Shown: positions 13,245-28,073 of the stretch, in pieces
How positions within the stretch are numbered: the stretch's first letter is position 1
How the letters are laid out: each line of letters opens with the position of its first letter
Origin: a virus
DNA length: 28,073 bases
Reading direction: 5' to 3' (one strand)
IMG/VR virus record: IMGVR_UViG_3300025168_000492
Coordinates: 1 to 28,073 of that record
Position numbers and translations under genes: made by a program
Notes under the pieces: model-generated
Database searches by the model: none
Told to the model about the DNA's origin: nothing
What the model saw: the letters and a program-made list of their open reading frames with translations, nothing else

Positions 13245-14310
13245 AATAATATCAGACGACAGACTTTCCTCTGATGGAAAGAATTTGTCTAGGGTTGCTT
13301 GGGAGTTGTCACGAACTCCCGACGACACTACACCATTAGACACAATCTTGTCTATAGATGCACCAGTGAACGAGATACCTTCTGTTGTTATGAGTATCGA
13401 ATGCACTATATTAGAGCGAGAGATATTCGCCTCATTTAGAGACCATGTAATGTGGGCAAGAACTTCCCGGGTTGATGCACCTTCTGAATTTGATGTTCCG
13501 GATTACTTTAAATATTCTGAAACGATGGACGACATTGTTTTGCTGAAGAATAGAATTTATGCTGATATGTTTGGAGGTATAATTCAAGATGAGTATCGGC
13601 TACACATGCCCATTTGTGCAAAGACATCATTTACCACTAGGTTGTCTTGGAGAGGTTTAATAAAAATTTACAAGCTTTACAAAGAGCTTGCTAAAATAGA
13701 TGAATATTACATTATTGGTAAAACAGAGCTTGATAATAAATTCCAGTTACACAAGTATGCTGACAACTATAGCTATGTTGACCCGATACCTATGTTGCAA
13801 AAAAACGAGATGGTCAGTGGTAAAAGTGGACCAATAGTAACTGTGTTCCAGGAGATGACTATTGGGTTAAGAGCCCAAGTTGTTCGCCATCGTAACTACA
13901 CCATAAAAGACAACCTTATGGAAATAATAAAAGCAAAAGATTGTTGGACGAGAACTCTTGGTGATAAGATCAAAATATCTATTTCAGCTGAGGTTGATTT
14001 TTGGAAAACTGTTGTTAATAAAAGGCAGTGTTGGATTGCTCAGTATGGTATTTGGAAAGACATAATAGTTGTTGCTCAAGAATACATAACTATCGGAGAG
14101 CAAGACCTGCCATGTAATAAAGGCTTTTGCCCTTATACACGTGATGCCGAACTAAGGCACACAGACGATGACCCCGGAGCACCTTGCCCCATTCACAGTA
14201 ACTTAACCTCTACACCTATCGACGAAAAGTACATGCCGATGGTTAAAATAGAAGCAAGTTACAGACCTGCCTTTTGGCAAAAACATATAGAAAAAGCGGA
14301 GACAAAATAA
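13234..14310 (+). CDS. Divergent, apparently duplicated ThyX-like protein
   Basis: 358 residues from ATG 13234 (11-base overlap with the previous gene); the frame opens at 13180 but that would overlap 65 bases. LRAQVVRHRNYTIKDN at 212-227 resembles the flavin/dUMP-binding RHR signature of ThyX thymidylate synthases, but the expected Ser seven residues after RHR is absent (Leu228). QDEYRLHMPICAKTSFTTRLSWRGLIKIYK at 118-147 resembles the later ThyX part. FRDHVMWARTS (68-78) and LRAQVVRHRNY (212-222) align, suggesting two degenerate ThyX folds in tandem. The C-terminus has Cys294, Cys299, Cys318 and His321, a possible zinc site. It could act in thymidylate or modified-pyrimidine synthesis; loss of the Ser makes ordinary ThyX activity doubtful. 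Confidence 0.6.
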   Translation: MKLKIISDDRLSSDGKNLSRVAWELSRTPDDTTPLDTILSIDAPVNEIPSVVMSIECTILEREIFASFRDHVMWARTSRVDAPSEFDVPDYFKYSETMDDIVLLKNRIYADMFGGIIQDEYRLHMPICAKTSFTTRLSWRGLIKIYKLYKELAKIDEYYIIGKTELDNKFQLHKYADNYSYVDPIPMLQKNEMVSGKSGPIVTVFQEMTIGLRAQVVRHRNYTIKDNLMEIIKAKDCWTRTLGDKIKISISAEVDFWKTVVNKRQCWIAQYGIWKDIIVVAQEYITIGEQDLPCNKGFCPYTRDAELRHTDDDPGAPCPIHSNLTSTPIDEKYMPMVKIEASYRPAFWQKHIEKAETK

Positions 14311-14879
14311 TGACAATGAAAATTTACTTAGCTGGACCATTTTTTAATGAAAAGCAAATTGAAACAATATCAGCAATAGAGGCTGAATTTGATAGATATG
14401 GTTTAGAATATTTTTCACCAAGGAAAAGTGGTGGTGTAATATCTCACTTGTCTTTAGAAGACAGAACTAAAGAGTCCAAAAGGATTTACGATAGCAATGT
14501 TTCAGCAATGATAGATGCTAATGTTTTGTTTGCGATTGTTGATGGTCGAGACACAGGCACGGTTTATGAGATGGGATACTTCAAAGCTTTAGCAGACCAC
14601 TTTAAATACAAAAGCGATTTAAGTGCTGATGAGCATAAAAGATATTCTATAACATACACCAATGAAAATTTTGGACTAAACATAATGCTAAAAGAAAGTG
14701 TTGATGCGCATGTTGTTGGAACAAAAGAGTTGCGAAAGTTTGCAGCTTTAGTTTCTAGAAGTTGGGACATGCCTGAAACTGGGAGAGCTGGGTTGAGCGG
14801 TATAGACTGGAAAGACCATGTTGGCAGACGCTCGTTAATTTTAAAAGAATTCCAAGACTTTAATCCGGATGTTATTTAA
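14310..14879 (+). CDS. Nucleoside 2-deoxyribosyltransferase-like or dNMP glycosidase-like enzyme
   Basis: 189 residues, ATG 14310 overlapping the previous stop by one base (TAATG) with GCGGAG upstream. YLAGPFF at 6-12, the RIYDSNVSAMIDANVLFAIVDG stretch ending at 79 with Asp78, and DTGTVYEMGY with Glu87 are the hallmarks of the nucleoside 2-deoxyribosyltransferase superfamily, which also includes dNMP N-glycosidases. It would cleave or exchange the base of a deoxynucleoside or deoxynucleotide. Residues 100-190 carry an insertion not typical of the compact 150-residue enzymes. It lies between the ThyX-like and HD genes in a nucleotide-metabolism block. Substrate cannot be deduced. Confidence 0.8.
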   Translation: MTMKIYLAGPFFNEKQIETISAIEAEFDRYGLEYFSPRKSGGVISHLSLEDRTKESKRIYDSNVSAMIDANVLFAIVDGRDTGTVYEMGYFKALADHFKYKSDLSADEHKRYSITYTNENFGLNIMLKESVDAHVVGTKELRKFAALVSRSWDMPETGRAGLSGIDWKDHVGRRSLILKEFQDFNPDVI

Positions 14880-16870: not shown

Positions 16871-16938
16871 CAATAGCAATAGCAGGATTTATAATAGGTA
16901 ATATTATTGTTGAAATTATAATAAAGTCCATTGGATGA
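16867..16938 (+). CDS. 23-residue hydrophobic microprotein between exonuclease and polymerase
   Basis: An ATG at 16867 overlaps the exonuclease stop (ATGA), and its TGA at 16936-16938 overlaps the polymerase ATG (ATGA). The product starts MTIAIAGFIIG and is nearly all Ile, Val, Gly and Ala with one Glu and one Lys near the end, long enough for one membrane helix. The Shine-Dalgarno is weak, so translation would rely on ribosomes finishing the exonuclease. It may be a real membrane peptide, or a relay that passes ribosomes to the polymerase start, which itself has no good site. Too short for statistical support. Confidence 0.5.
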   Translation: MTIAIAGFIIGNIIVEIIIKSIG

Positions 16939-19748
16939 TACAGCTAAGAACAAGAACAGAGTATTCTTTCCGGAAAGCTTATGGCAGAATTAATGATGTA
17001 ATAGACAGCTGCCCTGAAAAGTCTTTAGGAATAGCTGACTCAGGAACTTGGGGTCATGTTGCATTTTCTAAGGCATGCAAAAAGGCAGGTAAAAAGCCGT
17101 TATTCGGAGCTGAGATAGCTGTAGTTGAAGATGCAAAAGAACGCTCAAAACAGCCAGCAAATTACATGGCATTTATAGCTAAGAACAATGATGGTCTTTC
17201 AGAGATTTACGACCTTGTTACAAAAAGCACAGCAAAAGATAATTTTTACTATTTCCCCCGGATGAGTTATGAAGATCTTTTTGATGTTAGTGAGAATGTA
17301 ATAATGATAAGTGGGACGCACCCTGAATGGGGATTGCTTCCTTTGTCTAAAAAAGAGAATTTATACATAGAAATTAACCCGATGAGTTCCCCCAAGGCTT
17401 TAGAATTCTGTAAGCAAAAAGGGTTTAAACCAGTAGCAACTTCTGACAATTATTACCCAAGAGTTGGTGAGCGAAAAGCTTATGAAGTTTTAGTTGGCAT
17501 GAACCGCATGGAAAGAACTAAGCCGATGCATTTGCTTACTGATTGGGAAATTTTAGATTGCATTCCATGGATGCCCAAAGAGGCAATTGAAAATACCTAT
17601 AAAATATCTGATATGTGCGAGGTTGATTTACCAGTTGCGCAAATGATTTCTTTCTCCCCAGACAAAACACTCGAGCAGATGTGTATCGAAGGTGCTAAAG
17701 AAAGAAACATAGACTTGTCTGATCCCACTTATAAAGACCGTTTACGACGTGAAATAGACATGATTGCTATGAAAAAATTTGAAGATTATTTTTATGTTAT
17801 TGCTGACATGATAAGCTATGCGAAAAAACACATGTTAGTTGGTCCAGCTCGAGGCTCTTCCGCAGGTTCATTAGTTTGCTATTTAACAGGAATAACAGAT
17901 GTTGACCCTTTAAAGTTTGATCTGCTATTCGAAAGATTTATTGATGTTACGCGAGAAGACTTACCCGACATAGACATAGACTTTCAAGATGATCGGAGGG
18001 AAATGGTTTTTCAGTATTTAAGAGATAAGTATGGTGCAGAGAAAGTAGCTCATCTAGGAACTGTTAGTAGGTATAAAGCAAAAAGCACAATAACCGAAGT
18101 TGCCAAGGAGCTCGCGATACCTTCTTGGGAGGTTAATGATCTAAAAGGTGCGATAATAGAGCGGAGCTCAGGAGATGCTCGTGCAGCGATGTGCATAATG
18201 GATACTTTTAATGATTTAGAAATAGGCAAAGCAGTTCTTAAAAAATACCCACAAATGAAAATAGCAGAAAAAATGGAAAATCACGCTCGCCATTCAGGGG
18301 TTCATGCCGCAGGAATAATTGTAACAGAGGAGCCAGTTAGTAAATATTGCTCAGTAAGTGCTCAAAGTGGTGCAGCCCAAATAGACAAGAAAGATGCTGA
18401 AGACTTAAACTTGTTAAAGATTGATGCTTTGGGGTTAAGAACTTTATCAGTTTTGCAAGATGTTTTAGACCAAGTTGGTTGGGAAAGGAAAGAAATTGTT
18501 AATTTTCCTTTAGATGATGATAAAGCTTTTAAAATATTAAACGATGAAAAATATGCAGGTATATTTCAGTTTGAAGGCTATGCTTTGCAATCTTTAACTA
18601 GGCAGATGAAAGTTCATAATTTTGAAGATATATCTTCTATAACAGCTTTGGCTCGTCCTGGACCATTAAACTCTGGTGGGGCAACTGAATTTATTAAAAA
18701 AAGAACTGGGGCAGAGCCTGTTTACCATTTTCACCCAATGACTGCTGAATCAACAGAAGTTACTTATGGCATTGTTGTTTACCAAGAACAAGTGATGACA
18801 ATAGCTCGTGAAATAGGAAAATTGACTTGGGAAGAAGTCTCTCAACTCAGGAGAGCTATGAGCAAATCTTTAGGAGAGGAGTTCTTTGATAGATACTGGC
18901 AAAGGTTTAAAGTTGGTGCTGAGGAAAACGGAATAGAAGAAAAGAAAGCTCGTGAAATATGGGACAACATCAACACAATGGGTTCTATGGCTTTTAATAG
19001 AAGTCACGCAGTTTCTTATGCGATGGTAAGCTATTGGTGCTGCGTTTTAAAAAGCCGCTTTCCTTTAGAGTTCGCTGCTGCTTGTCTTAGGAATGTTAAA
19101 GATGACGATCAAGGCGTTAAGCTATTGCGCGAAGTTGCAAGGGAGGGTCTCGTTTACAAACCGTATGATAAATTTAAGTCTAAATTAAATTGGTCAGTTC
19201 AGGATGGTGAGCTGATAGGTGGATTAATAGGGATAAAAGGTGTTGGTCCAAAGCTCGCTGAAGACATTATTAATAGAAGAGAAATGAAGCAACCGCTGAC
19301 CCCTAGACAAGAAAAACTTTTAGACAATGGTGAAACGCCTTATGATGACATATTCGAGTGTGAAAGACGTTTTGGTCATATAAAGAAAGACCCTAGTTCG
19401 CATAAAATTGTAACACCAATAACTGACATACAAGACTTAGAAGCTGACAATCCGGGAACTTTTGTTTTCTTTGGTAAGTTAAAAGAGAAGAATTTACGAG
19501 ATCTTAATGAAGCAGTTAATTTGGCTAAAAGAGGTGGTCGAAGAGCTGAAACTCATAATTTGTGGCTCAATTTAACTTTCGAGGATGATACCGGACCAAT
19601 AATAGCTGGAATAGACAGATTTAAATATCCTAAATTAGGCAAGCCAATTGTTGAAGATGGAAGAATAGGGGACTGGTATCTTATAAAAGGAACAATTAGA
19701 CAAGGATATAGAAAGATAAATATAGAGAAGTGGCGAGCACTTGTATAA
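16935..19748 (+). CDS. dnaE: DNA polymerase III alpha subunit, DnaE type
   Basis: 937 residues, C-family replicative polymerase. The N-terminal PHP domain has lost its metal ligands: LRTRTEYS replaces LHVHSEYS (Arg5, Arg7) and ADSGTWG replaces TDHGN. The palm is intact: GPARGSSAGSLVCYLTGI at 303-320, PDIDIDF at 344-350 (catalytic-type Asp347, Asp349), and IDALGLRTL at 496-504 (Asp497). Fingers motifs ARPGPLNSGG, VYQEQVM and FNRSHAVSYAM follow. The C-terminal 100 residues form an OB-like region. It is about 220 residues shorter than E. coli alpha, apparently lacking the clamp-loader-binding tail. ATG overlaps the microprotein stop. Proofreading is probably supplied by the DnaQ-type protein upstream. 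Confidence 0.96.
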   Translation: MIQLRTRTEYSFRKAYGRINDVIDSCPEKSLGIADSGTWGHVAFSKACKKAGKKPLFGAEIAVVEDAKERSKQPANYMAFIAKNNDGLSEIYDLVTKSTAKDNFYYFPRMSYEDLFDVSENVIMISGTHPEWGLLPLSKKENLYIEINPMSSPKALEFCKQKGFKPVATSDNYYPRVGERKAYEVLVGMNRMERTKPMHLLTDWEILDCIPWMPKEAIENTYKISDMCEVDLPVAQMISFSPDKTLEQMCIEGAKERNIDLSDPTYKDRLRREIDMIAMKKFEDYFYVIADMISYAKKHMLVGPARGSSAGSLVCYLTGITDVDPLKFDLLFERFIDVTREDLPDIDIDFQDDRREMVFQYLRDKYGAEKVAHLGTVSRYKAKSTITEVAKELAIPSWEVNDLKGAIIERSSGDARAAMCIMDTFNDLEIGKAVLKKYPQMKIAEKMENHARHSGVHAAGIIVTEEPVSKYCSVSAQSGAAQIDKKDAEDLNLLKIDALGLRTLSVLQDVLDQVGWERKEIVNFPLDDDKAFKILNDEKYAGIFQFEGYALQSLTRQMKVHNFEDISSITALARPGPLNSGGATEFIKKRTGAEPVYHFHPMTAESTEVTYGIVVYQEQVMTIAREIGKLTWEEVSQLRRAMSKSLGEEFFDRYWQRFKVGAEENGIEEKKAREIWDNINTMGSMAFNRSHAVSYAMVSYWCCVLKSRFPLEFAAACLRNVKDDDQGVKLLREVAREGLVYKPYDKFKSKLNWSVQDGELIGGLIGIKGVGPKLAEDIINRREMKQPLTPRQEKLLDNGETPYDDIFECERRFGHIKKDPSSHKIVTPITDIQDLEADNPGTFVFFGKLKEKNLRDLNEAVNLAKRGGRRAETHNLWLNLTFEDDTGPIIAGIDRFKYPKLGKPIVEDGRIGDWYLIKGTIRQGYRKINIEKWRALV

Positions 19749-22871: not shown

Positions 22872-23271
22872 GAGAAATTTTTGGGTTCTTATTAGGAACT
22901 CTTTGCCAATCGAAATGTATAGAGTTGAAAATAAAGTTTCAAAAGGAATGCCAGATATTCATTATGTAAATGAAGCAAAATCAGGCTGGATAGAGTTAAA
23001 GTATCTGCCTAAATGGCCAAAGAAACGCATCAGCTCTGGGCTTATGTTAAATCAATCTCTTTGGTTAGAGAATTACAGCAAAAACCAAGGGCAAGCGTGG
23101 GTGCTAATAAGAATAGGTAGAGACTTTGTAGCTTTAATCGATGGCTCTAAAGCTGAAAAACTTTACAACAGACCTTGTATTAAAGACTTTTTAAACATGT
23201 TGTCTTGGTCTAGGAAAGGAAACTTGTCTAAAGAAGACTGGGAGGAACTGGCCGGGATAATAGCCTCTTAG
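22864..23271 (+). CDS. PD-(D/E)XK nuclease, VRR-NUC/Holliday-junction resolvase-like
   Basis: 135 residues, GGAGG 7 bases before ATG. RVENKVSKGMPDIHYV (Glu22, Gly28, Asp31) followed by GWIELKYLP (Glu44, Lys46) is the PD-(D/E)XK active site in VRR-NUC-like order, typical of branched-DNA nucleases. It would resolve recombination or replication intermediates before packaging, consistent with the coupled SNF2-type helicase. It is the last gene of the rightward unit, and its stop overlaps that of the opposing minus-strand gene. Confidence 0.85.
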   Translation: MSERNFWVLIRNSLPIEMYRVENKVSKGMPDIHYVNEAKSGWIELKYLPKWPKKRISSGLMLNQSLWLENYSKNQGQAWVLIRIGRDFVALIDGSKAEKLYNRPCIKDFLNMLSWSRKGNLSKEDWEELAGIIAS

Positions 23272-23822
23272 TCTGATAGTGGATTGTCAAAAGCCTCCTG
23301 TAATCTTTCGTTTAATTTATCTTCAAGCTTAGTCATGTCTTCTTCTATTCTATTTTCAACTTCGCGCATTGTATCACGAGCATCTTTTTCTGTCTCTCTA
23401 TTTAAAGTTTCAACTTCTCTTATTGCGGATGTTACGTCTTTTTGAACTTCGTTCATTTGGTTTAAAACATCTTCCAACACCATGTCTATAGAACCTTGCG
23501 TGGTTTTTATACGTTCCGAAGATGTTTCGATTTTTTTCTCTAGCTTATCAATGTATCCCTCTAGCTTGAGCAGGTCATCCCGTAGATTGTTTTTGATGTC
23601 TCTCGTGTAGACAATCGCATCTTCTAACTTAGTCAGAACCAGCTCATTCTCAGCTTTAATTGCGTCGATGTCTATTTCTTGAACAATCTCTTTCATGTCC
23701 ATGTAATCTTTGTAAATTTCGAAACCAGCCCAAGCACCTCCACCCAGCGTACCCAAAAGAGGTATTAACAACATAAGCTTGCCACCCTTAATAGTTGCAC
23801 CACCTATTTCTACTTCAGCCAT
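23268..23822 (-). CDS. Membrane-anchored coiled-coil protein (i-spanin-like or structural)
   Basis: 184 residues, AAGGAGAGGATC before ATG. Residues about 14-34 (GKLMLLIPLLGTLGGGAWAG) form one membrane helix; almost all of the rest is charged coiled coil to the end (FDNPLSD). The N-terminal VEIGGATIKGGK block recalls a small-protein family common in marine phages. An inner-membrane anchor with a long coiled coil is the shape of an i-spanin, but orientation and a partner are not shown. It is the last gene of the leftward unit, tail-to-tail with the nuclease gene with a 4-base overlap. Confidence 0.78.
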   Translation of the reverse strand: MAEVEIGGATIKGGKLMLLIPLLGTLGGGAWAGFEIYKDYMDMKEIVQEIDIDAIKAENELVLTKLEDAIVYTRDIKNNLRDDLLKLEGYIDKLEKKIETSSERIKTTQGSIDMVLEDVLNQMNEVQKDVTSAIREVETLNRETEKDARDTMREVENRIEEDMTKLEDKLNERLQEAFDNPLSD

Positions 23823-23832
23823 GATCCTCTCC

Positions 23833-24225
23833 TTATTCGAATGCCAACTCTCGTAGCTTATTAATTTCTTGCTTTAACTTCATTACTTCTAATTGTTTCT
23901 TTTGTAACTCTAATTCATACAGCCTATTACAATCTATCCTAGACTTAGCCCTTTTGCCTAATGGTATTGTAATTTTGCTGTAAATACCAATATCCCCTGT
24001 TTTTCCACTGTTTTCTGCTGTACCGCCTTGAATAATACTTGTAAGGCCAAACTCTATATTGGTGGCAGATCCAATGGCATTCGTGCAATCTAGATCTCCT
24101 GATCTAAAAGAGTCTGATTGGTAGTTTGTACCAGAGTTGGGTAGAGATAGGCTCAGTGAGTTTGATGTCGAGTCTGCAAAAGCAGACTTTGCAACCATTA
24201 ATAATACTATAAACCATATTCTCAT
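23833..24225 (-). CDS. Exported protein with C-terminal coiled coil
   Basis: 130 residues, the ATG directly follows the previous stop (TAAATG). A Sec signal peptide ends near AFA-DS at 17-18. The mature N-terminus is Ser/Asn/Gly-rich, with FRSGDLDCTNAIGSATN in the middle, then IGIYSKITIPLGKRAKSRID, then a Leu/Lys/Glu coiled coil. A pair of Cys (47, about 99) could form a disulfide in the periplasm. Periplasmic or virion-associated by inference; no enzyme motif. Confidence 0.8.
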   Translation of the reverse strand: MRIWFIVLLMVAKSAFADSTSNSLSLSLPNSGTNYQSDSFRSGDLDCTNAIGSATNIEFGLTSIIQGGTAENSGKTGDIGIYSKITIPLGKRAKSRIDCNRLYELELQKKQLEVMKLKQEINKLRELAFE

Positions 24226-24600
24226 TTAATTTACTTTGGAACAAATCCTCGACGCTATTTGGCTGGTTTGCTCCGCTCCCTTGAGTATTTTTGAAATTGT
24301 ACAAATGTATTGCACTTTGTCTAAGTCATCGTTTCGCACGTACACCTCAAACGGATACCGCTTGGTGTAACGCACCTTTATAAGTTTTGATGTCGAGGCA
24401 AATGGAATTTCTTTCCAATCTTTAGTAAACACACCAATCTCAAAATAAGAAATTTCGCTACGCCTGTTAAAAAGAGACATCTTAGTAACAGACACACCTT
24501 CAATGTATGACAGCTCAAACTTGGGGTATGCAGGTGTCATCTCGTGCGCTTGAGCCTGAAACCCAAGCAACATAAAGATTAATGCTACTTTGCAATACAT
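24226..24600 (-). CDS. Exported Ig-like protein, faintly PapD-chaperone-like
   Basis: 124 residues with a signal peptide cleaved near QAQA-HE. Mature part: PKFELSYIEGVSVTKMSLFN, SYFEIGVFTKDWKEIPFAST, YTKRYPFEVYVRNDDLDKV and YICTISKI, a series of alternating strands that resembles the first domain of periplasmic pilus chaperones. The second domain of real chaperones is missing. The start lies 16 bases inside the preceding gene with no Shine-Dalgarno, so it is translationally coupled. A phage-encoded periplasmic Ig domain may bind the exported neighbour protein; this is inference. Confidence 0.78.
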   Translation of the reverse strand: MYCKVALIFMLLGFQAQAHEMTPAYPKFELSYIEGVSVTKMSLFNRRSEISYFEIGVFTKDWKEIPFASTSKLIKVRYTKRYPFEVYVRNDDLDKVQYICTISKILKGAEQTSQIASRICSKVN

Positions 24601-25088
24601 TCGGCAACAATCATTGCTGTGTAGTTCCCAGCAGGTAATGCAGTATTATCCGCAGAACCGTAAGAAGCAGTTGACGCCACCTTAAACCAAGTCGAGCCAG
24701 CTAGTGTCATGGTATATTTTGTCGTGTTAGAGACAACGACCTTTGCCGCTTCATAAGCCGACATTCCAGCAACTGAGTGCGAACTTACCACTGTGCTGCC
24801 TGTCCATGTAACACCATCTGTAAGGCTGGGTGCTGAACTAAAGCTGTTGGGGTGTGTAAACTTAGTATAATAGTAGTCTGCGGCAGCAATATCTACTCTT
24901 ATAATTGCATCAGCTCCACCGTCAGCACTAGCTGTGGATAATTTCCAAGGCGACGGATTCCCATACTGCCCCGGGGTTGTTGTGTATATTGAGCAATTTG
25001 CCTGAACTAGCCCATTGATCGGTGAATTTACTGCCCAAGCACAAGTAGCTGAAAGCAAAAATATTAAAGATGTTAATTTTTTAATCAT
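24585..25088 (-). CDS. Exported, strand-rich protein, pilin- or coat-like
   Basis: 167 residues, GGAGAAAAC before ATG. Signal peptide cleaved near CAWA-VN. The mature part is Ser/Thr/Ala/Tyr-rich, low in charge and rich in predicted strands, with IIRVDIAAADYYYTKFTHP near the middle and a final ALPAGNYTAMIVAECIAK strand. Two Cys in the mature chain (near 32 and 164) could pair. The composition resembles secreted pilin-like or coat proteins. It is followed by the Ig-like gene with a 16-base overlap, an arrangement like a subunit and its chaperone. Function unproven. Confidence 0.78.
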   Translation of the reverse strand: MIKKLTSLIFLLSATCAWAVNSPINGLVQANCSIYTTTPGQYGNPSPWKLSTASADGGADAIIRVDIAAADYYYTKFTHPNSFSSAPSLTDGVTWTGSTVVSSHSVAGMSAYEAAKVVVSNTTKYTMTLAGSTWFKVASTASYGSADNTALPAGNYTAMIVAECIAK

Positions 25089-25102
25089 GTTTTCTCCATT
25101 GT

Positions 25103-25990
25103 TTATTCGCCATATTGTGAGCGAACTATGCTTCTGTGCACACCATCTTGTGCTAAATTTCTTAGTCCTTTTAAATTGTCTTTTATATCACCACCGTTTA
25201 TTTTTAAAGTGTCTTTATATACACCACCGTCTATAGCAAAATTGTAATATAATTCTAACTTTCCAATTGCTGCAATTTTAGCCATCATAGCCATTTGCTC
25301 AAGAGGGTCTGCGATTTTCTCTGCCGCACCTGCAACAGAAAGTATTTCCTCGACGGACAACTCTTCACTATCTTCTTCTTTTTGTGTTTCTAAAGCTTCT
25401 TGCTCTTCAGCCTCTGCCTGCTCCTCAAGTTGAATCTGCACCCACTGATTGTAATATGGATCTTGTACATTAGGTGTATTAAGCAAATTATTGTCTAAAA
25501 GATATTGGTAGAGCGCATCTTTAAACGCAGGGCAGCTTGGGTCGCTAAGTGGTGTGTGGCATGGATCAAACTTGTAGTGATACAGTATTGTAACGTCAGA
25601 CAAAGAACCGTCTCCTGTAACCTTTATTTCACCGTCACCAAATAGATTGCCCAACGTAGAAGGAACTGGGTCGTAGGTAACTTTAGTGCCTCCGGGGATT
25701 TTATTCCAATTATCGGTATACTCGTATATATACTTGTCACTACCTATTTTTTTATTAGTAATTGATACAGTGGAGTCTTTTGTTGGGTCTTTAGTAAGTG
25801 TGTATCGGTGGAATATCCCCTCGACTGTCAGTCCAGTCTGGCTGGGAAGTAAGTTGTTCATTGCCCATGTGTGAGCTCTGGAAGCAGCGTTTTCTGTGTT
25901 GCCATATATGTTTTCAGAGGAGCAGTAGTAAGGCCAAGAAAAGACCACCAATGCCAGCAGCACCTTTAGCGGTGTTCTTGTCATCGTCAT
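25103..25990 (-). CDS. Exported protein with acidic coiled-coil segment
   Basis: 295 residues from ATG 25990, chosen because AGGAGG lies 6 bases upstream and it gives a signal peptide (TPLKVLLALVVFSWPYYC). The open frame extends 90 bases further back without support. The N-terminal half is strand-rich, with DKYIYEYTDNWNKIPGG. The middle has a Cys pair around DPCHTPLSDPSCPAFKD, then a Glu/Gln-rich acidic stretch and helices. The first 77 bases overlap the end of the preceding gene in another frame. No family recognised; periplasmic or virion-associated. Confidence 0.75.
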   Translation of the reverse strand: MTMTRTPLKVLLALVVFSWPYYCSSENIYGNTENAASRAHTWAMNNLLPSQTGLTVEGIFHRYTLTKDPTKDSTVSITNKKIGSDKYIYEYTDNWNKIPGGTKVTYDPVPSTLGNLFGDGEIKVTGDGSLSDVTILYHYKFDPCHTPLSDPSCPAFKDALYQYLLDNNLLNTPNVQDPYYNQWVQIQLEEQAEAEEQEALETQKEEDSEELSVEEILSVAGAAEKIADPLEQMAMMAKIAAIGKLELYYNFAIDGGVYKDTLKINGGDIKDNLKGLRNLAQDGVHRSIVRSQYGE

Positions 25991-26519
25991 CCCATTCCTC
26001 CTTTTTTCCTGCAACATACCCCGGTACAAGTTGTGGATTGTTTTCCCATTCAGTCTTAGCCGCATCTCCCACAAGACCATTGATTGGACACGGGGTTCCA
26101 GAGTCTTTCATAGCAGTCCAGACTCTTTTGTCTTCGCACATCACCGCCACAGCTGCAACTTTAAGACCCATGTCATACATTACCTTGGCATTCTTCAGCC
26201 TTTCACAGTTTAAGTCACGCACTGTTTTACCTGCTGAAATACCCAGTATTTGCGTCTGCACAGCTCCTGCTACGCTTATATGGCAAGTGTCTGAGCTAGA
26301 TGAATTAATGCTCGGAGCCATAGCAGAAGGTGGTGGAGACTTAACTGTGGTTGTGCTGTCTATTGTAGATGCTGAGTTGGAATTTGTATTGCTATTCGTT
26401 TCGATGCAATTACTATTTGTCGCACTGTCACATCCTTCTGCGAATGCCATCGGTACAAGCACCGATAAATACAGTAGAGCTAGAAAGCCGCACATTAAAA
26501 ATAATAAAACTTTTTTCAT
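25914..26519 (-). CDS. Exported protein with Ser/Asn linker and C-terminal membrane helix
   Basis: 201 residues from ATG 26519, AGGGAG 6 bases upstream (inside the last codons of the previous gene). Signal peptide MKKVLLFLM onward, cleaved near AFA-EG. A Ser/Asn/Thr-rich linker follows, then KSPPPSAMAPSINSSSSD, then a conserved-looking domain with AGAVQTQILGISAGKTVRDL, NCERLKNAKVMYDMGLKVAA, VMCEDKRVW and GTPCPINGLVGDAA. Its Cys residues may form disulfides. I recall similar SPPPSA...INSSNSD proteins in marine phages, with no known function. The chain ends with GLFLALLLLL, a membrane anchor. Confidence 0.82.
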   Translation of the reverse strand: MKKVLLFLMCGFLALLYLSVLVPMAFAEGCDSATNSNCIETNSNTNSNSASTIDSTTTVKSPPPSAMAPSINSSSSDTCHISVAGAVQTQILGISAGKTVRDLNCERLKNAKVMYDMGLKVAAVAVMCEDKRVWTAMKDSGTPCPINGLVGDAAKTEWENNPQLVPGYVAGKKEEWDDDDKNTAKGAAGIGGLFLALLLLL

Positions 26520-26520
26520 A

Positions 26521-26823
26521 TTACTCCCTGTTAGCAAACGCTGACCCCGTTAGTATAGCACCAAACGCCAGATGAAACAACCCACCTCCTAAAAGCGTGA
26601 AAGGCTCGTGTTGACCTGTTAATTTTTTCATCAATTCCATTTGAACCATAGGCTCTGATGTAGCGTTAATAATATCCATAAACTGACTTATGTCTGGTCG
26701 GTTCAGACCCCACCAAACTGGGCAGAAAAGGAAGTCATAGAAACAGATTAATAAATAAAATATGAGTGCAGTCCAACGCCATGTCATGGTGGACTTCTGT
26801 TGAGCTGTAAGTTGTTTGCTCAT
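26521..26823 (-). CDS. Holin-like two-helix membrane protein
   Basis: 100 residues. A basic, Gln/Thr-rich N-terminus is followed by RWTALIFYLLICFYDFLFCP (helix 1) and, after a polar loop with DIINATSEPMVQMELMKKL, LLGGGLFHLAFGAILTGSAF (helix 2). Short phage proteins with a WRW-type start and a D-F-x-x-x-P helix end are common holins, which permeabilise the inner membrane at lysis. The ATG directly follows the preceding stop, with no separate Shine-Dalgarno. No endolysin is in the window, so the assignment rests on topology and neighbours. Confidence 0.7.
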   Translation of the reverse strand: MSKQLTAQQKSTMTWRWTALIFYLLICFYDFLFCPVWWGLNRPDISQFMDIINATSEPMVQMELMKKLTGQHEPFTLLGGGLFHLAFGAILTGSAFANRE

Positions 26824-26925
26824 TTAAAGGCAGGGAGGAGTACACATCGCCTTATCTACACCGTAAAAAATAACAGCAATAAATATTACCAGTGCCAAAC
26901 CTATCCATATCCATTTGTTTTTCAT
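26824..26925 (-). CDS. Small single-pass membrane protein, 33 residues
   Basis: ATG 26925 has GGAG 6 bases upstream, overlaps the lipoprotein stop (ATGA), and its own TAA abuts the holin-like start. MKNKWIWIG leads into one membrane helix (LALVIFIAVIFYG), then VDKAMCTPPCL. It belongs to the run of tiny lysis/envelope genes. Possible roles are a holin partner or antiholin; not determined. Confidence 0.68.
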   Translation of the reverse strand: MKNKWIWIGLALVIFIAVIFYGVDKAMCTPPCL

Positions 26926-27044
26926 TTCTTACTCCAACTACAAAAAGGCTCACCCAACTTCAAAGGGCAATCCGCTATAAAGCCCGTACATCCTGACAAG
27001 AATAGAGACAATATTAAAAGATATTTAGGTAAGCCTAGCTGCAT
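26922..27044 (-). CDS. Tiny lipoprotein, o-spanin (Rz1-like) candidate
   Basis: 40 residues, ATG 27044, AAGGA about 9 bases upstream, 20-base overlap with the gene before. A signal peptide YLLILSLFLSGC contains a lipobox (LSGC, Cys19), so the mature protein would be a lipid-anchored 22-residue peptide with two further Cys. Its size and location beside a holin-like gene fit an outer-membrane spanin component; a coiled-coil partner may be the protein at 23268-23822. The spanin role is inference; the lipobox is seen directly. Confidence 0.68.
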   Translation of the reverse strand: MQLGLPKYLLILSLFLSGCTGFIADCPLKLGEPFCSWSKK

Positions 27045-28073
27045 CTAAAATTTTCCTTCTTGCATTTGGTTTTATGTTTTCAGTTATACTGCTTAAAGCC
27101 CCTATGTTGAAACCTTTATCCATTTCTCCAGGCTCTTCTGCTTCAATGCTTGCATTCCAATCTTCAGGTGTCATTTCTCCACTTTGAACTACTGGAGGGT
27201 ATGTACTAAGATTAACATCCCCTGTCTTTAAATCGTCTTCACTAAGAGTACCTGCATTACCTTGCATAAAGTCCGCTGAGAAAGGAATGTATCTGTCTTT
27301 AATAGCACCAGCCGCGACAACACTACTTGAACCAAGGCCACCAGACACAAGTCGACCAGCACTAATCCAGCGTTTTACAATTTTGTCCATATCTGCTTTG
27401 GATGATAAAGCTGACTCTAAAGCTGCTGGGTTTGTTGACATTATAACCTGAGCAACTTGTTTTAGCTGATCATCATCCATGTCTTTAGAAAACGAACCAA
27501 GAACTTTTCTAGCTACACTTATACCAGCTAACATATCACCATTTGCAAGTCTAAGTAAGTCTCCAGCACCAATTCCTAAGCCAACCCTCTCTAAACCAGC
27601 AGTTGTTATAGCTGTTTGAGAACCACTTAAAATTTTATTCATAACATTATTAGAAGTTGCAGAAAGTTGAATTTTTTTGAAAAGTTCTTCAGCACTATCT
27701 TCTGGAAAAATTTTAGACAATATTAGAGATTCTCTTTTGTCCATATCTGCAAGTTTGTTTGTAAAATTTGTAACATTGGATCTTGAAAATTTATCTCTCA
27801 TTCTGTTTCCAAAACCTAGTCTAAGAGAGGCAAGTATTTCTAAATCTTTAGGGTTGCTCATATCTAAATCTTTAACAAAATTATCAAACATAACTTCAAA
27901 TTCATCAGCTGATTTTTTGAAAGCCTCATCACCCATTTTAAATGCCTCTTCCATTGTTCTTAGGTGTCTCCACTTGTCCCTAACAACACCTAGTTCGGGT
28001 GCTAATTCATCTAAATAAGCTCTTAATTGTTGTTCCAATTCTTTTACTGGCTTTACATTTACACTTTCATCAG
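27025..28073 (-). CDS. C-terminal part of a large virion-type protein, N-terminus off right edge
   Basis: The frame is open from 27025 to the right edge without a stop; the first codons visible read DESVNVKPVKE, so the true start lies beyond the window. The 349 visible residues are mostly helical and Asp/Lys/Ser-rich, with GLERVGLGIGAGDLLRLANG and MLAGISVARKVLGSFSK near the middle and IKPNARRKILDAARLT at the end. No signal peptide or enzyme motif is visible. Position before the lysis genes and composition suggest an internal virion or tail-associated protein, typical of very long phage genes. Confidence 0.85.
   Translation of the reverse strand, partial: DESVNVKPVKELEQQLRAYLDELAPELGVVRDKWRHLRTMEEAFKMGDEAFKKSADEFEVMFDNFVKDLDMSNPKDLEILASLRLGFGNRMRDKFSRSNVTNFTNKLADMDKRESLILSKIFPEDSAEELFKKIQLSATSNNVMNKILSGSQTAITTAGLERVGLGIGAGDLLRLANGDMLAGISVARKVLGSFSKDMDDDQLKQVAQVIMSTNPAALESALSSKADMDKIVKRWISAGRLVSGGLGSSSVVAAGAIKDRYIPFSADFMQGNAGTLSEDDLKTGDVNLSTYPPVVQSGEMTPEDWNASIEAEEPGEMDKGFNIGALSSITENIKPNARRKILDAARLT

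What the first reader, a model, noticed from the sequence alone, without database searches (positions are those of the whole stretch)
23833..26519. Five consecutive exported proteins, including a chaperone-like Ig domain and a pilin-like neighbour
Proteins at 25914, 25103, 24585, 24226 and 23833 all have clear Sec signal peptides, unusual for a phage late region where virion proteins are cytoplasmic. One is PapD-like in strand pattern and is coupled to a low-charge, strand-rich exported protein, like a chaperone with its subunit. They may remodel the host envelope in infection, for example block superinfection or coat the cell surface, or join a periplasmic lysis complex.
Basis: partly seen in the sequence, partly recalled or inferred. 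Interest (0 to 1): 0.6.

Follow-up and report, generated by a model that had tools for sequence, protein, structure and literature searches.

The report
Phage exported chaperone and partner-protein cassette
This marine phage carries a conserved run of genes for proteins sent out of the host cytoplasm, including one that folds like the helper protein of bacterial pili and its strand-rich partner; the core three genes recur in unrelated phages, so phages probably use them to alter the envelope of the cell they infect, but no known family describes them.

Summary
Genes 25914 (A), 25103 (B), 24585 (E), 24226 (C) and 23833 (D) encode exported proteins and form one operon with a sixth, membrane-anchored coiled-coil gene, 23268 (CC). 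The order A-B-E-C-D-CC recurs in most of 160 related viral contigs. The core triad E-C-D also occurs in Vibrio T5-like, podo- and siphophages and, reordered, in Klebsiella and Erwinia myophages. No Pfam or named family covers them. AlphaFold predicts C (pLDDT 91) as one PapD-like Ig domain: the 28 best PDB hits are pilus chaperones, domain 1. E is a confident beta-sandwich with pilin-like features, but its pilin match is weak. No usher was found in 26 cassette-bearing records, seven of them named phages, and C lacks the second chaperone domain, so this is not a chaperone-usher system. Best reading: a usher-less chaperone-subunit unit that remodels the infected cell's envelope, most likely for superinfection exclusion; the function is inferred.

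The parts
25914..26519 (-). Gene A: exported protein (201 aa), S/T/N-rich linker, conserved Cys core (GAVQTQILGISAG..DxNCERLK..YDMGMKVAAV..C..GTPCP), hydrophobic C-terminus in this phage
   Evidence: Signal peptide; >590 relatives in IMG/VR; in cultured pelagiphages HTVC023P/115P/202P/033P and roseophages CRP-207/810
25103..25990 (-). Gene B: exported modular protein (295 aa): N-terminal beta-rich head, one DPxCPGY-type unit, acidic linker, conserved C-terminus; overlaps A
   Evidence: Alignment A9; in short cassettes B' is 430-809 aa with swapped heads and, in two loci, many QQC..NPLY..CPGY repeats
24585..25088 (-). Gene E: exported beta-sandwich protein, conserved N-terminal PIxGxVxSKC segment and C-terminal LPAGxYxAxVxAEC; pilin-like partner candidate
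   Evidence: AF2 pLDDT 90; Foldseek FimF/CfaB/PapG pilin domain E 3e-3 to 6e-3; VIA Z at most 8
24226..24600 (-). Gene C: single-domain PapD-like exported protein (124 aa), mature N-terminal His, conserved Cys pair in the F-G hairpin
   Evidence: AF2 pLDDT 91; Foldseek and VIA matches to FaeE, Caf1M, DraB, PapD, FimC domain 1; alignment A4
23833..24225 (-). Gene D: exported protein with Cys-flanked beta-hairpin-like segment (EFGVTG..DVGVYARIxIPLG) and C-terminal helix (NCxxLYxLEL)
   Evidence: Alignment A7; homologues in Vibrio, Klebsiella and Erwinia phages
23268..23822 (-). Gene CC: N-terminal transmembrane segment plus long coiled coil ending in invariant NPL
   Evidence: Alignments A2, A10; present with A even where E-C-D are absent
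26521..26823 (-). Small membrane protein directly upstream of A; found only in the nearest relative
26922..27044 (-). 40-aa lipoprotein (LSGC lipobox); a lipoprotein also follows the triad in Vibrio phages

Best explanation
The block is a conserved phage cassette for envelope remodelling. Its core is E-C-D. C is a one-domain PapD-like periplasmic chaperone that probably folds or caps E, a pilin-like Ig subunit whose conserved N-terminal extension would act as donor strand; D is a small Cys-linked exported partner. There is no usher. In marine podophages the triad sits inside a second module, A-B-CC, that appears to span the envelope: CC in the inner membrane, A and the modular B (variable beta-rich head) outside it. 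Made late in infection, the complex most likely changes the outer surface so that further phages cannot adsorb or inject (superinfection exclusion, including protection of progeny from debris). Shown: export signals, operon, co-occurrence, C fold. Inferred: C-E donor-strand pairing, location, timing, function.
For: Gene order conserved in 60 of 83 loci of the second scan and most of the first, with E, C and D never missing where the flank was long enough and the family models could see them. Triad conserved between marine, Vibrio and enterobacterial phages (hhalign marine vs Vibrio E 1.5e-10, C 1e-6, D 3e-12; vs enteric D 1.4e-10, C 7e-5); D and E are each found in 24 enterobacterial-type records, the same accessions. 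C fold; Vibrio C keeps LxLSPMR and GRVCAKLRLYWP, resembling the PapD Arg8 and Lys112 strands (reading). E-C overlap of 16 nt suggests translational coupling. Contexts differ: between fibre genes and lysis genes in marine and Vibrio phages, in a tRNA region or beside thymidine kinase in Erwinia and Klebsiella phages, as expected for an accessory, non-virion unit. Precedent for exported phage proteins in superinfection exclusion: T5 Llp (PMC9586334, listed; details from own knowledge).
Against: No experiment shows exclusion, surface location or C-E binding. Sequence profiles do not link C to PapD_N or E to pilins. The PapD-like fold is shared with MSP/VAP domains that are not chaperones (Z 9 to 9.9). 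E scores as well against non-pilin Ig sandwiches. Proximity to holin and endolysin in many phages fits a lysis role too.
Confidence: 0.45

Rival explanations
1. Lysis accessory: CC is an inner-membrane spanin-like coiled coil and A, B, D form its outer partner; the cassette helps breach or time the opening of the outer membrane.
For: CC topology (N-terminal TM, coiled coil, conserved C-terminal NPL). GH19/GH108-type endolysin or 3TM holin-like genes were recognised on 14 of 55 full-cassette loci, downstream of it, and lie beside the triad in T5-like Vibrio phages. HTVC023P has a peptidase M15 right after CC.
Against: Spanins do not need an Ig chaperone and partner; the triad lies in tRNA or metabolic regions in Erwinia and Klebsiella phages; CC is not part of the triad there.
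Confidence: 0.2
2. Surface fibres or adhesins that glue infected cells or debris to new hosts (aggregation, 'sibling capture'), as proposed for pelagiphage curli.
For: B has swappable beta-rich heads and Cys-repeat stalks; pilin-like E; pelagiphages carry curli cassettes for which this was proposed (PMC9599517).
Against: No usher or other outer-membrane export gate found; fibre formation not shown.
Confidence: 0.17
3. C has the PapD-like fold but acts as a periplasmic scaffold or peptide binder, like MSP domains, not as a donor-strand chaperone; E is a stable Ig effector.
For: MSP/VAP domains score Z 9 to 9.9; one domain only; no profile link to PapD_N.
Against: Export, strict pairing and translational coupling with E; E's conserved, low-confidence N-terminal extension.
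Confidence: 0.2
4. Ordinary virion proteins with a misread hydrophobic N-terminus.
For: Late-gene position next to portal in some contigs.
Against: Signal peptides conserved across five families; triad shared by podo-, sipho- and myophages.
Confidence: 0.05

Closest known systems
Chaperone-usher pili (PapD/FimC/Caf1M and pilin subunits)
   Same: C has the domain-1 fold with a Cys pair placed in the F-G hairpin as in Caf1M-type chaperones; E is an exported Ig-like sandwich with pilin-like ends, coupled to C
   Different: No usher; C lacks domain 2; no sequence-profile similarity; third conserved partner D; phage-borne
Pelagiphage curli (type VIII) cassettes, PMC9599517
   Same: Multi-gene exported cassette moved between marine phage lineages
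   Different: No CsgG, CsgF or curli-repeat match in the window proteins; different genes and fold
T5 Llp and other phage superinfection-exclusion envelope proteins
   Same: Exported phage proteins made in infection; Vibrio T5-like phages carry the triad plus a small lipoprotein near fibre genes
   Different: Llp is one small lipoprotein; here three to six proteins with a chaperone-like member; function not tested
PHROGs 25895 (E), 25455 (C), 37374 (D), 20531 (A)
   Same: Same sequence families (the C family is reached through its Vibrio members), all 'unknown function'
   Different: Listed as separate unknown families; not tied to a fold or to one system there

Membership tests
Chaperone-usher system | Usher (PF00577) encoded with chaperone and pilin | tested here: not met
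   None above cut-off in 19 IMG/VR records and 7 named phage records with the triad; E. coli control rings. IMG/VR records may be fragments and 2.275.O is a partial genome
Chaperone-usher system | Two-domain periplasmic chaperone of about 200 aa | tested here: not met
   C is 124 aa, one Ig domain ending at strand G1
PapD-like domain fold | Domain-1 Ig fold of pilus chaperones | tested here: met
   Top 28 Foldseek PDB hits are pilus chaperones; VIA Z up to 10.6, rmsd 2.2-3.0 for chaperone rows
Pfam PapD_N (PF00345) | Profile match by sequence | tested here: not met
   No match in window, 39 relatives or 12 phage records; hhalign to E. coli chaperones not significant
Pilin subunit | Incomplete Ig fold completed by a donor strand, free N-terminal extension | tested here: inconclusive
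   Confident sandwich with low-confidence conserved N-terminal segment; weak pilin matches, not among top VIA rows
Curli type VIII system | CsgG and CsgF homologues | tested here: not met
   No Pfam match to either for any window protein 23268-28038
Spanin (i-spanin) | N-terminal TM plus periplasmic coiled coil with outer-membrane partner | tested here: inconclusive
   CC has the topology by sequence; partner and function untested
Virion proteins | Present in purified particles | not testable with these tools
   No proteomics available here

The most novel reading that the evidence does not exclude
A usher-less, single-domain chaperone plus pilin-like subunit plus small third partner, shared by podo-, sipho- and jumbo myophages, assembles a donor-strand complex in the envelope of infected cells that shields them from other phages.
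Probability: 0.33. Interest if true: 0.85.

Novelty: new variant of a known kind. Interest (0 to 1): 0.66.

Why it matters
It shows that a compact three-gene exported unit with a pilus-chaperone fold has spread among phages of very different build and host, including abundant marine ones, and has gone unnoticed because each protein is a separate unknown family. If the chaperone-subunit reading is right it would be an unusually small such system that works without an usher; if the exclusion reading is right it is a widespread way for phages to fence off the cell they occupy. Both can be tested in culturable Vibrio phages.

Tried and rejected
Pfam, NCBIfam and PDB sequence searches for A, B, C, D, E: nothing informative. 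hhalign of C to eight E. coli K-12 pilus chaperones and of E to nineteen pilins: no better than unrelated or reversed controls. A and D look alike by eye (Cys, hairpin, NCxRL) but hhalign does not support homology. Curli membership rejected (PMC9599517). Bacterial genome scan with the E family gave one contig, from a Bacteroidetes MAG, so no bacterial origin found at that sensitivity. E, C, D single-sequence searches of GenBank phages found nothing; consensus D did. Plasmid search with E: none. BFVD search with C: only scattered Ig-like hits. Literature searches found no earlier description in the held library.

Full report
Setting. The window is a 28-kb virus fragment. Its terminase large subunit is 79.7% identical to Roseobacter phage CRP-902 and 79.3% to CRP-901. 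Terminase and portal lie at the left, early/replication genes run rightwards to 23271, and late genes return on the minus strand from 28073 to 23268. The phage is therefore a relative of the CRP-901 group in its packaging genes, but with a DnaE-like polymerase where CRP-901 has a primase-polymerase (PMC10149686).

Observation. The five ORFs exist, and four pass a simple signal-peptide rule that 1.5% of shuffled sequences pass; the fifth, 23833, fails by one lysine but 43 of 52 of its relatives pass. Six of the nine genes from 23268 to 28038 pass, against one weak hit among the other 29 genes. The reading frame of 25103 should start near 25990.

A conserved cassette. Profile searches showed the order A-B-E-C-D-CC on one strand in most of them. 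A separate scan with C gave at least 530 relatives and 80 loci; counting the 3 other loci scanned with them, 60 of 83 showed the whole order and the rest were cut by contig ends or were the distant relatives. The two scans overlap in some contigs, and both keep the hits nearest the query, so frequencies are biased towards close relatives. Some phages have a short form, A-B'-CC, without E, C and D: pelagiphages HTVC023P, HTVC115P, HTVC202P and contigs L041, L062, L076, L085, L087. In these B' is 430-809 aa, with different beta-rich heads and, in L085 and L087, many QQC..NPLY..CPGY repeats; the window B has a single such unit. A CC-like gene follows in each.

The triad reaches further. A consensus of D found Vibrio T5-like phages and others. 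In Vibrio phage Chester, gp146, gp147 and gp148 match the E, C and D profiles (4e-6, 4e-6, 3e-13) in the same order, next to a lipoprotein gene, holin and endolysin. The same triad is in Vibrio podophage 252E42.2, siphophage 51E28.1 and pVp-1, in jumbo phage 2.275.O, and in the order C-D-E in Erwinia phage SNUABM_01 and Klebsiella jumbo phage Eowyn. For the enterobacterial set D and E hit the same 24 records. Profile comparison supports D throughout, C throughout but weakly for the enteric set, and E between marine and Vibrio; the enteric and 2.275.O E proteins are assigned by position and by their shape only. PHROGs lists these families as unknown.

Structure. C was predicted from 39 sequences with mean pLDDT 91. 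The 28 best Foldseek hits in the PDB are periplasmic pilus chaperones (FaeE, Caf1M, DraB, PapD, SafB, FimC, SfaE; best E 1.4e-4), and VIA-align gives Z about 10 with the alignment running from model residue 19 or 20, the mature N-terminus, to the last residue, matching chaperone domain 1 and nothing of domain 2. VAP/MSP domains, which belong to the same fold group, score Z 9 to 9.9, and a chitosanase Ig domain about 10, so the fold alone does not prove a chaperone. C has an invariant Cys pair in the F and G strands and, in marine and enteric members, an invariant His at the mature N-terminus. The Vibrio members keep LxLSPMR (in 252E42.2) at the start and CAKLRLYWP at the end, which read like the Arg8 and Lys112 segments of PapD; this is a reading from memory, and hhalign against eight E. 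coli K-12 chaperones is not significant. E was predicted with pLDDT 90. Foldseek's nearest PDB entries include FimF, CfaB, the PapG pilin domain and PapA at E 3e-3 to 2e-2, but VIA ranks staphylococcal adhesin and integrin Ig domains first with Z at most 8. Its conserved N-terminal PIxGxVxSKC segment is modelled with lower confidence, as a free donor strand would be; that is suggestive only.

What is missing. No usher was found in 19 IMG/VR records of 29-81 kb or in seven named phage records, with E. coli as working control. PapD_N itself is not matched. So the system may work like a chaperone-subunit pair but is not a member of the chaperone-usher family.

Function. In marine and Vibrio phages the cassette lies between tail-fibre-like genes and lysis genes; in Erwinia and Klebsiella phages the triad lies in a tRNA cluster or beside thymidine kinase. 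A unit that is exported, spread over three virion types and several genome contexts, and absent from close relatives (no A match in CRP-901/902) behaves like an accessory host-modifying unit. Superinfection exclusion is a common job of exported phage proteins (own knowledge; T5 Llp, PMC9586334) and is my first choice at modest confidence; fibre-mediated aggregation, as proposed for pelagiphage curli (PMC9599517), and a spanin-like lysis role for CC remain open.

Limits. Only two structure jobs were allowed; A, B, D and CC were not modelled. No complex could be predicted. Contig fragments limit statements of absence. No transcript or proteome data for these genes were available; the pelagiphage HTVC027P transcriptome paper (PMC12753301) does not discuss them in the section read.

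Noticed in passing
24226-24600 (mature N-terminus) and A4 relatives: C proteins of marine and enteric phages start their mature chain with an invariant His (AxA|HExTP), as metal-binding periplasmic proteins sometimes do; no reason is known.
   Followed up: partly
L085:8483-10912, L087:8359-10356: B' proteins hold long tandem QQC..NPLY..CPGY..AY repeats between a beta-rich head and a conserved tail; heads differ completely between phages.
   Followed up: partly
L005:3292-3873, L009:9162-9584, L009:7776-8531: Public annotations look wrong: CC in CRP-207 and CRP-810 is called lysozyme and A in CRP-810 is called OmpA family.
   Followed up: no
16935-19748: DnaE-like DNA polymerase III alpha in a phage whose terminase is 80% identical to CRP-901/902, which use a primase-polymerase: replication module swapped.
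   Followed up: no
26922-27044: 40-aa lipoprotein overlapping the end of gene 27025; only the nearest relative L011 shares it; Vibrio phages have a different small lipoprotein after D.
   Followed up: partly
L092:5896-6424: In Vibrio phage Chester, D (gp148) overlaps both the C gene and a lipoprotein gene (gp149), a dense arrangement just upstream of holin and endolysin.
   Followed up: partly
14274-14879: Reads like a nucleoside 2-deoxyribosyltransferase (MKIYLAGPFF...), next to an HD-type gene at 14879.
   Followed up: no
L091:2967-3461: The only E relative found in 84,980 bacterial and archaeal genomes is on a 6.3-kb contig of a Bacteroidetes MAG, probably a phage contig binned with it.
   Followed up: partly
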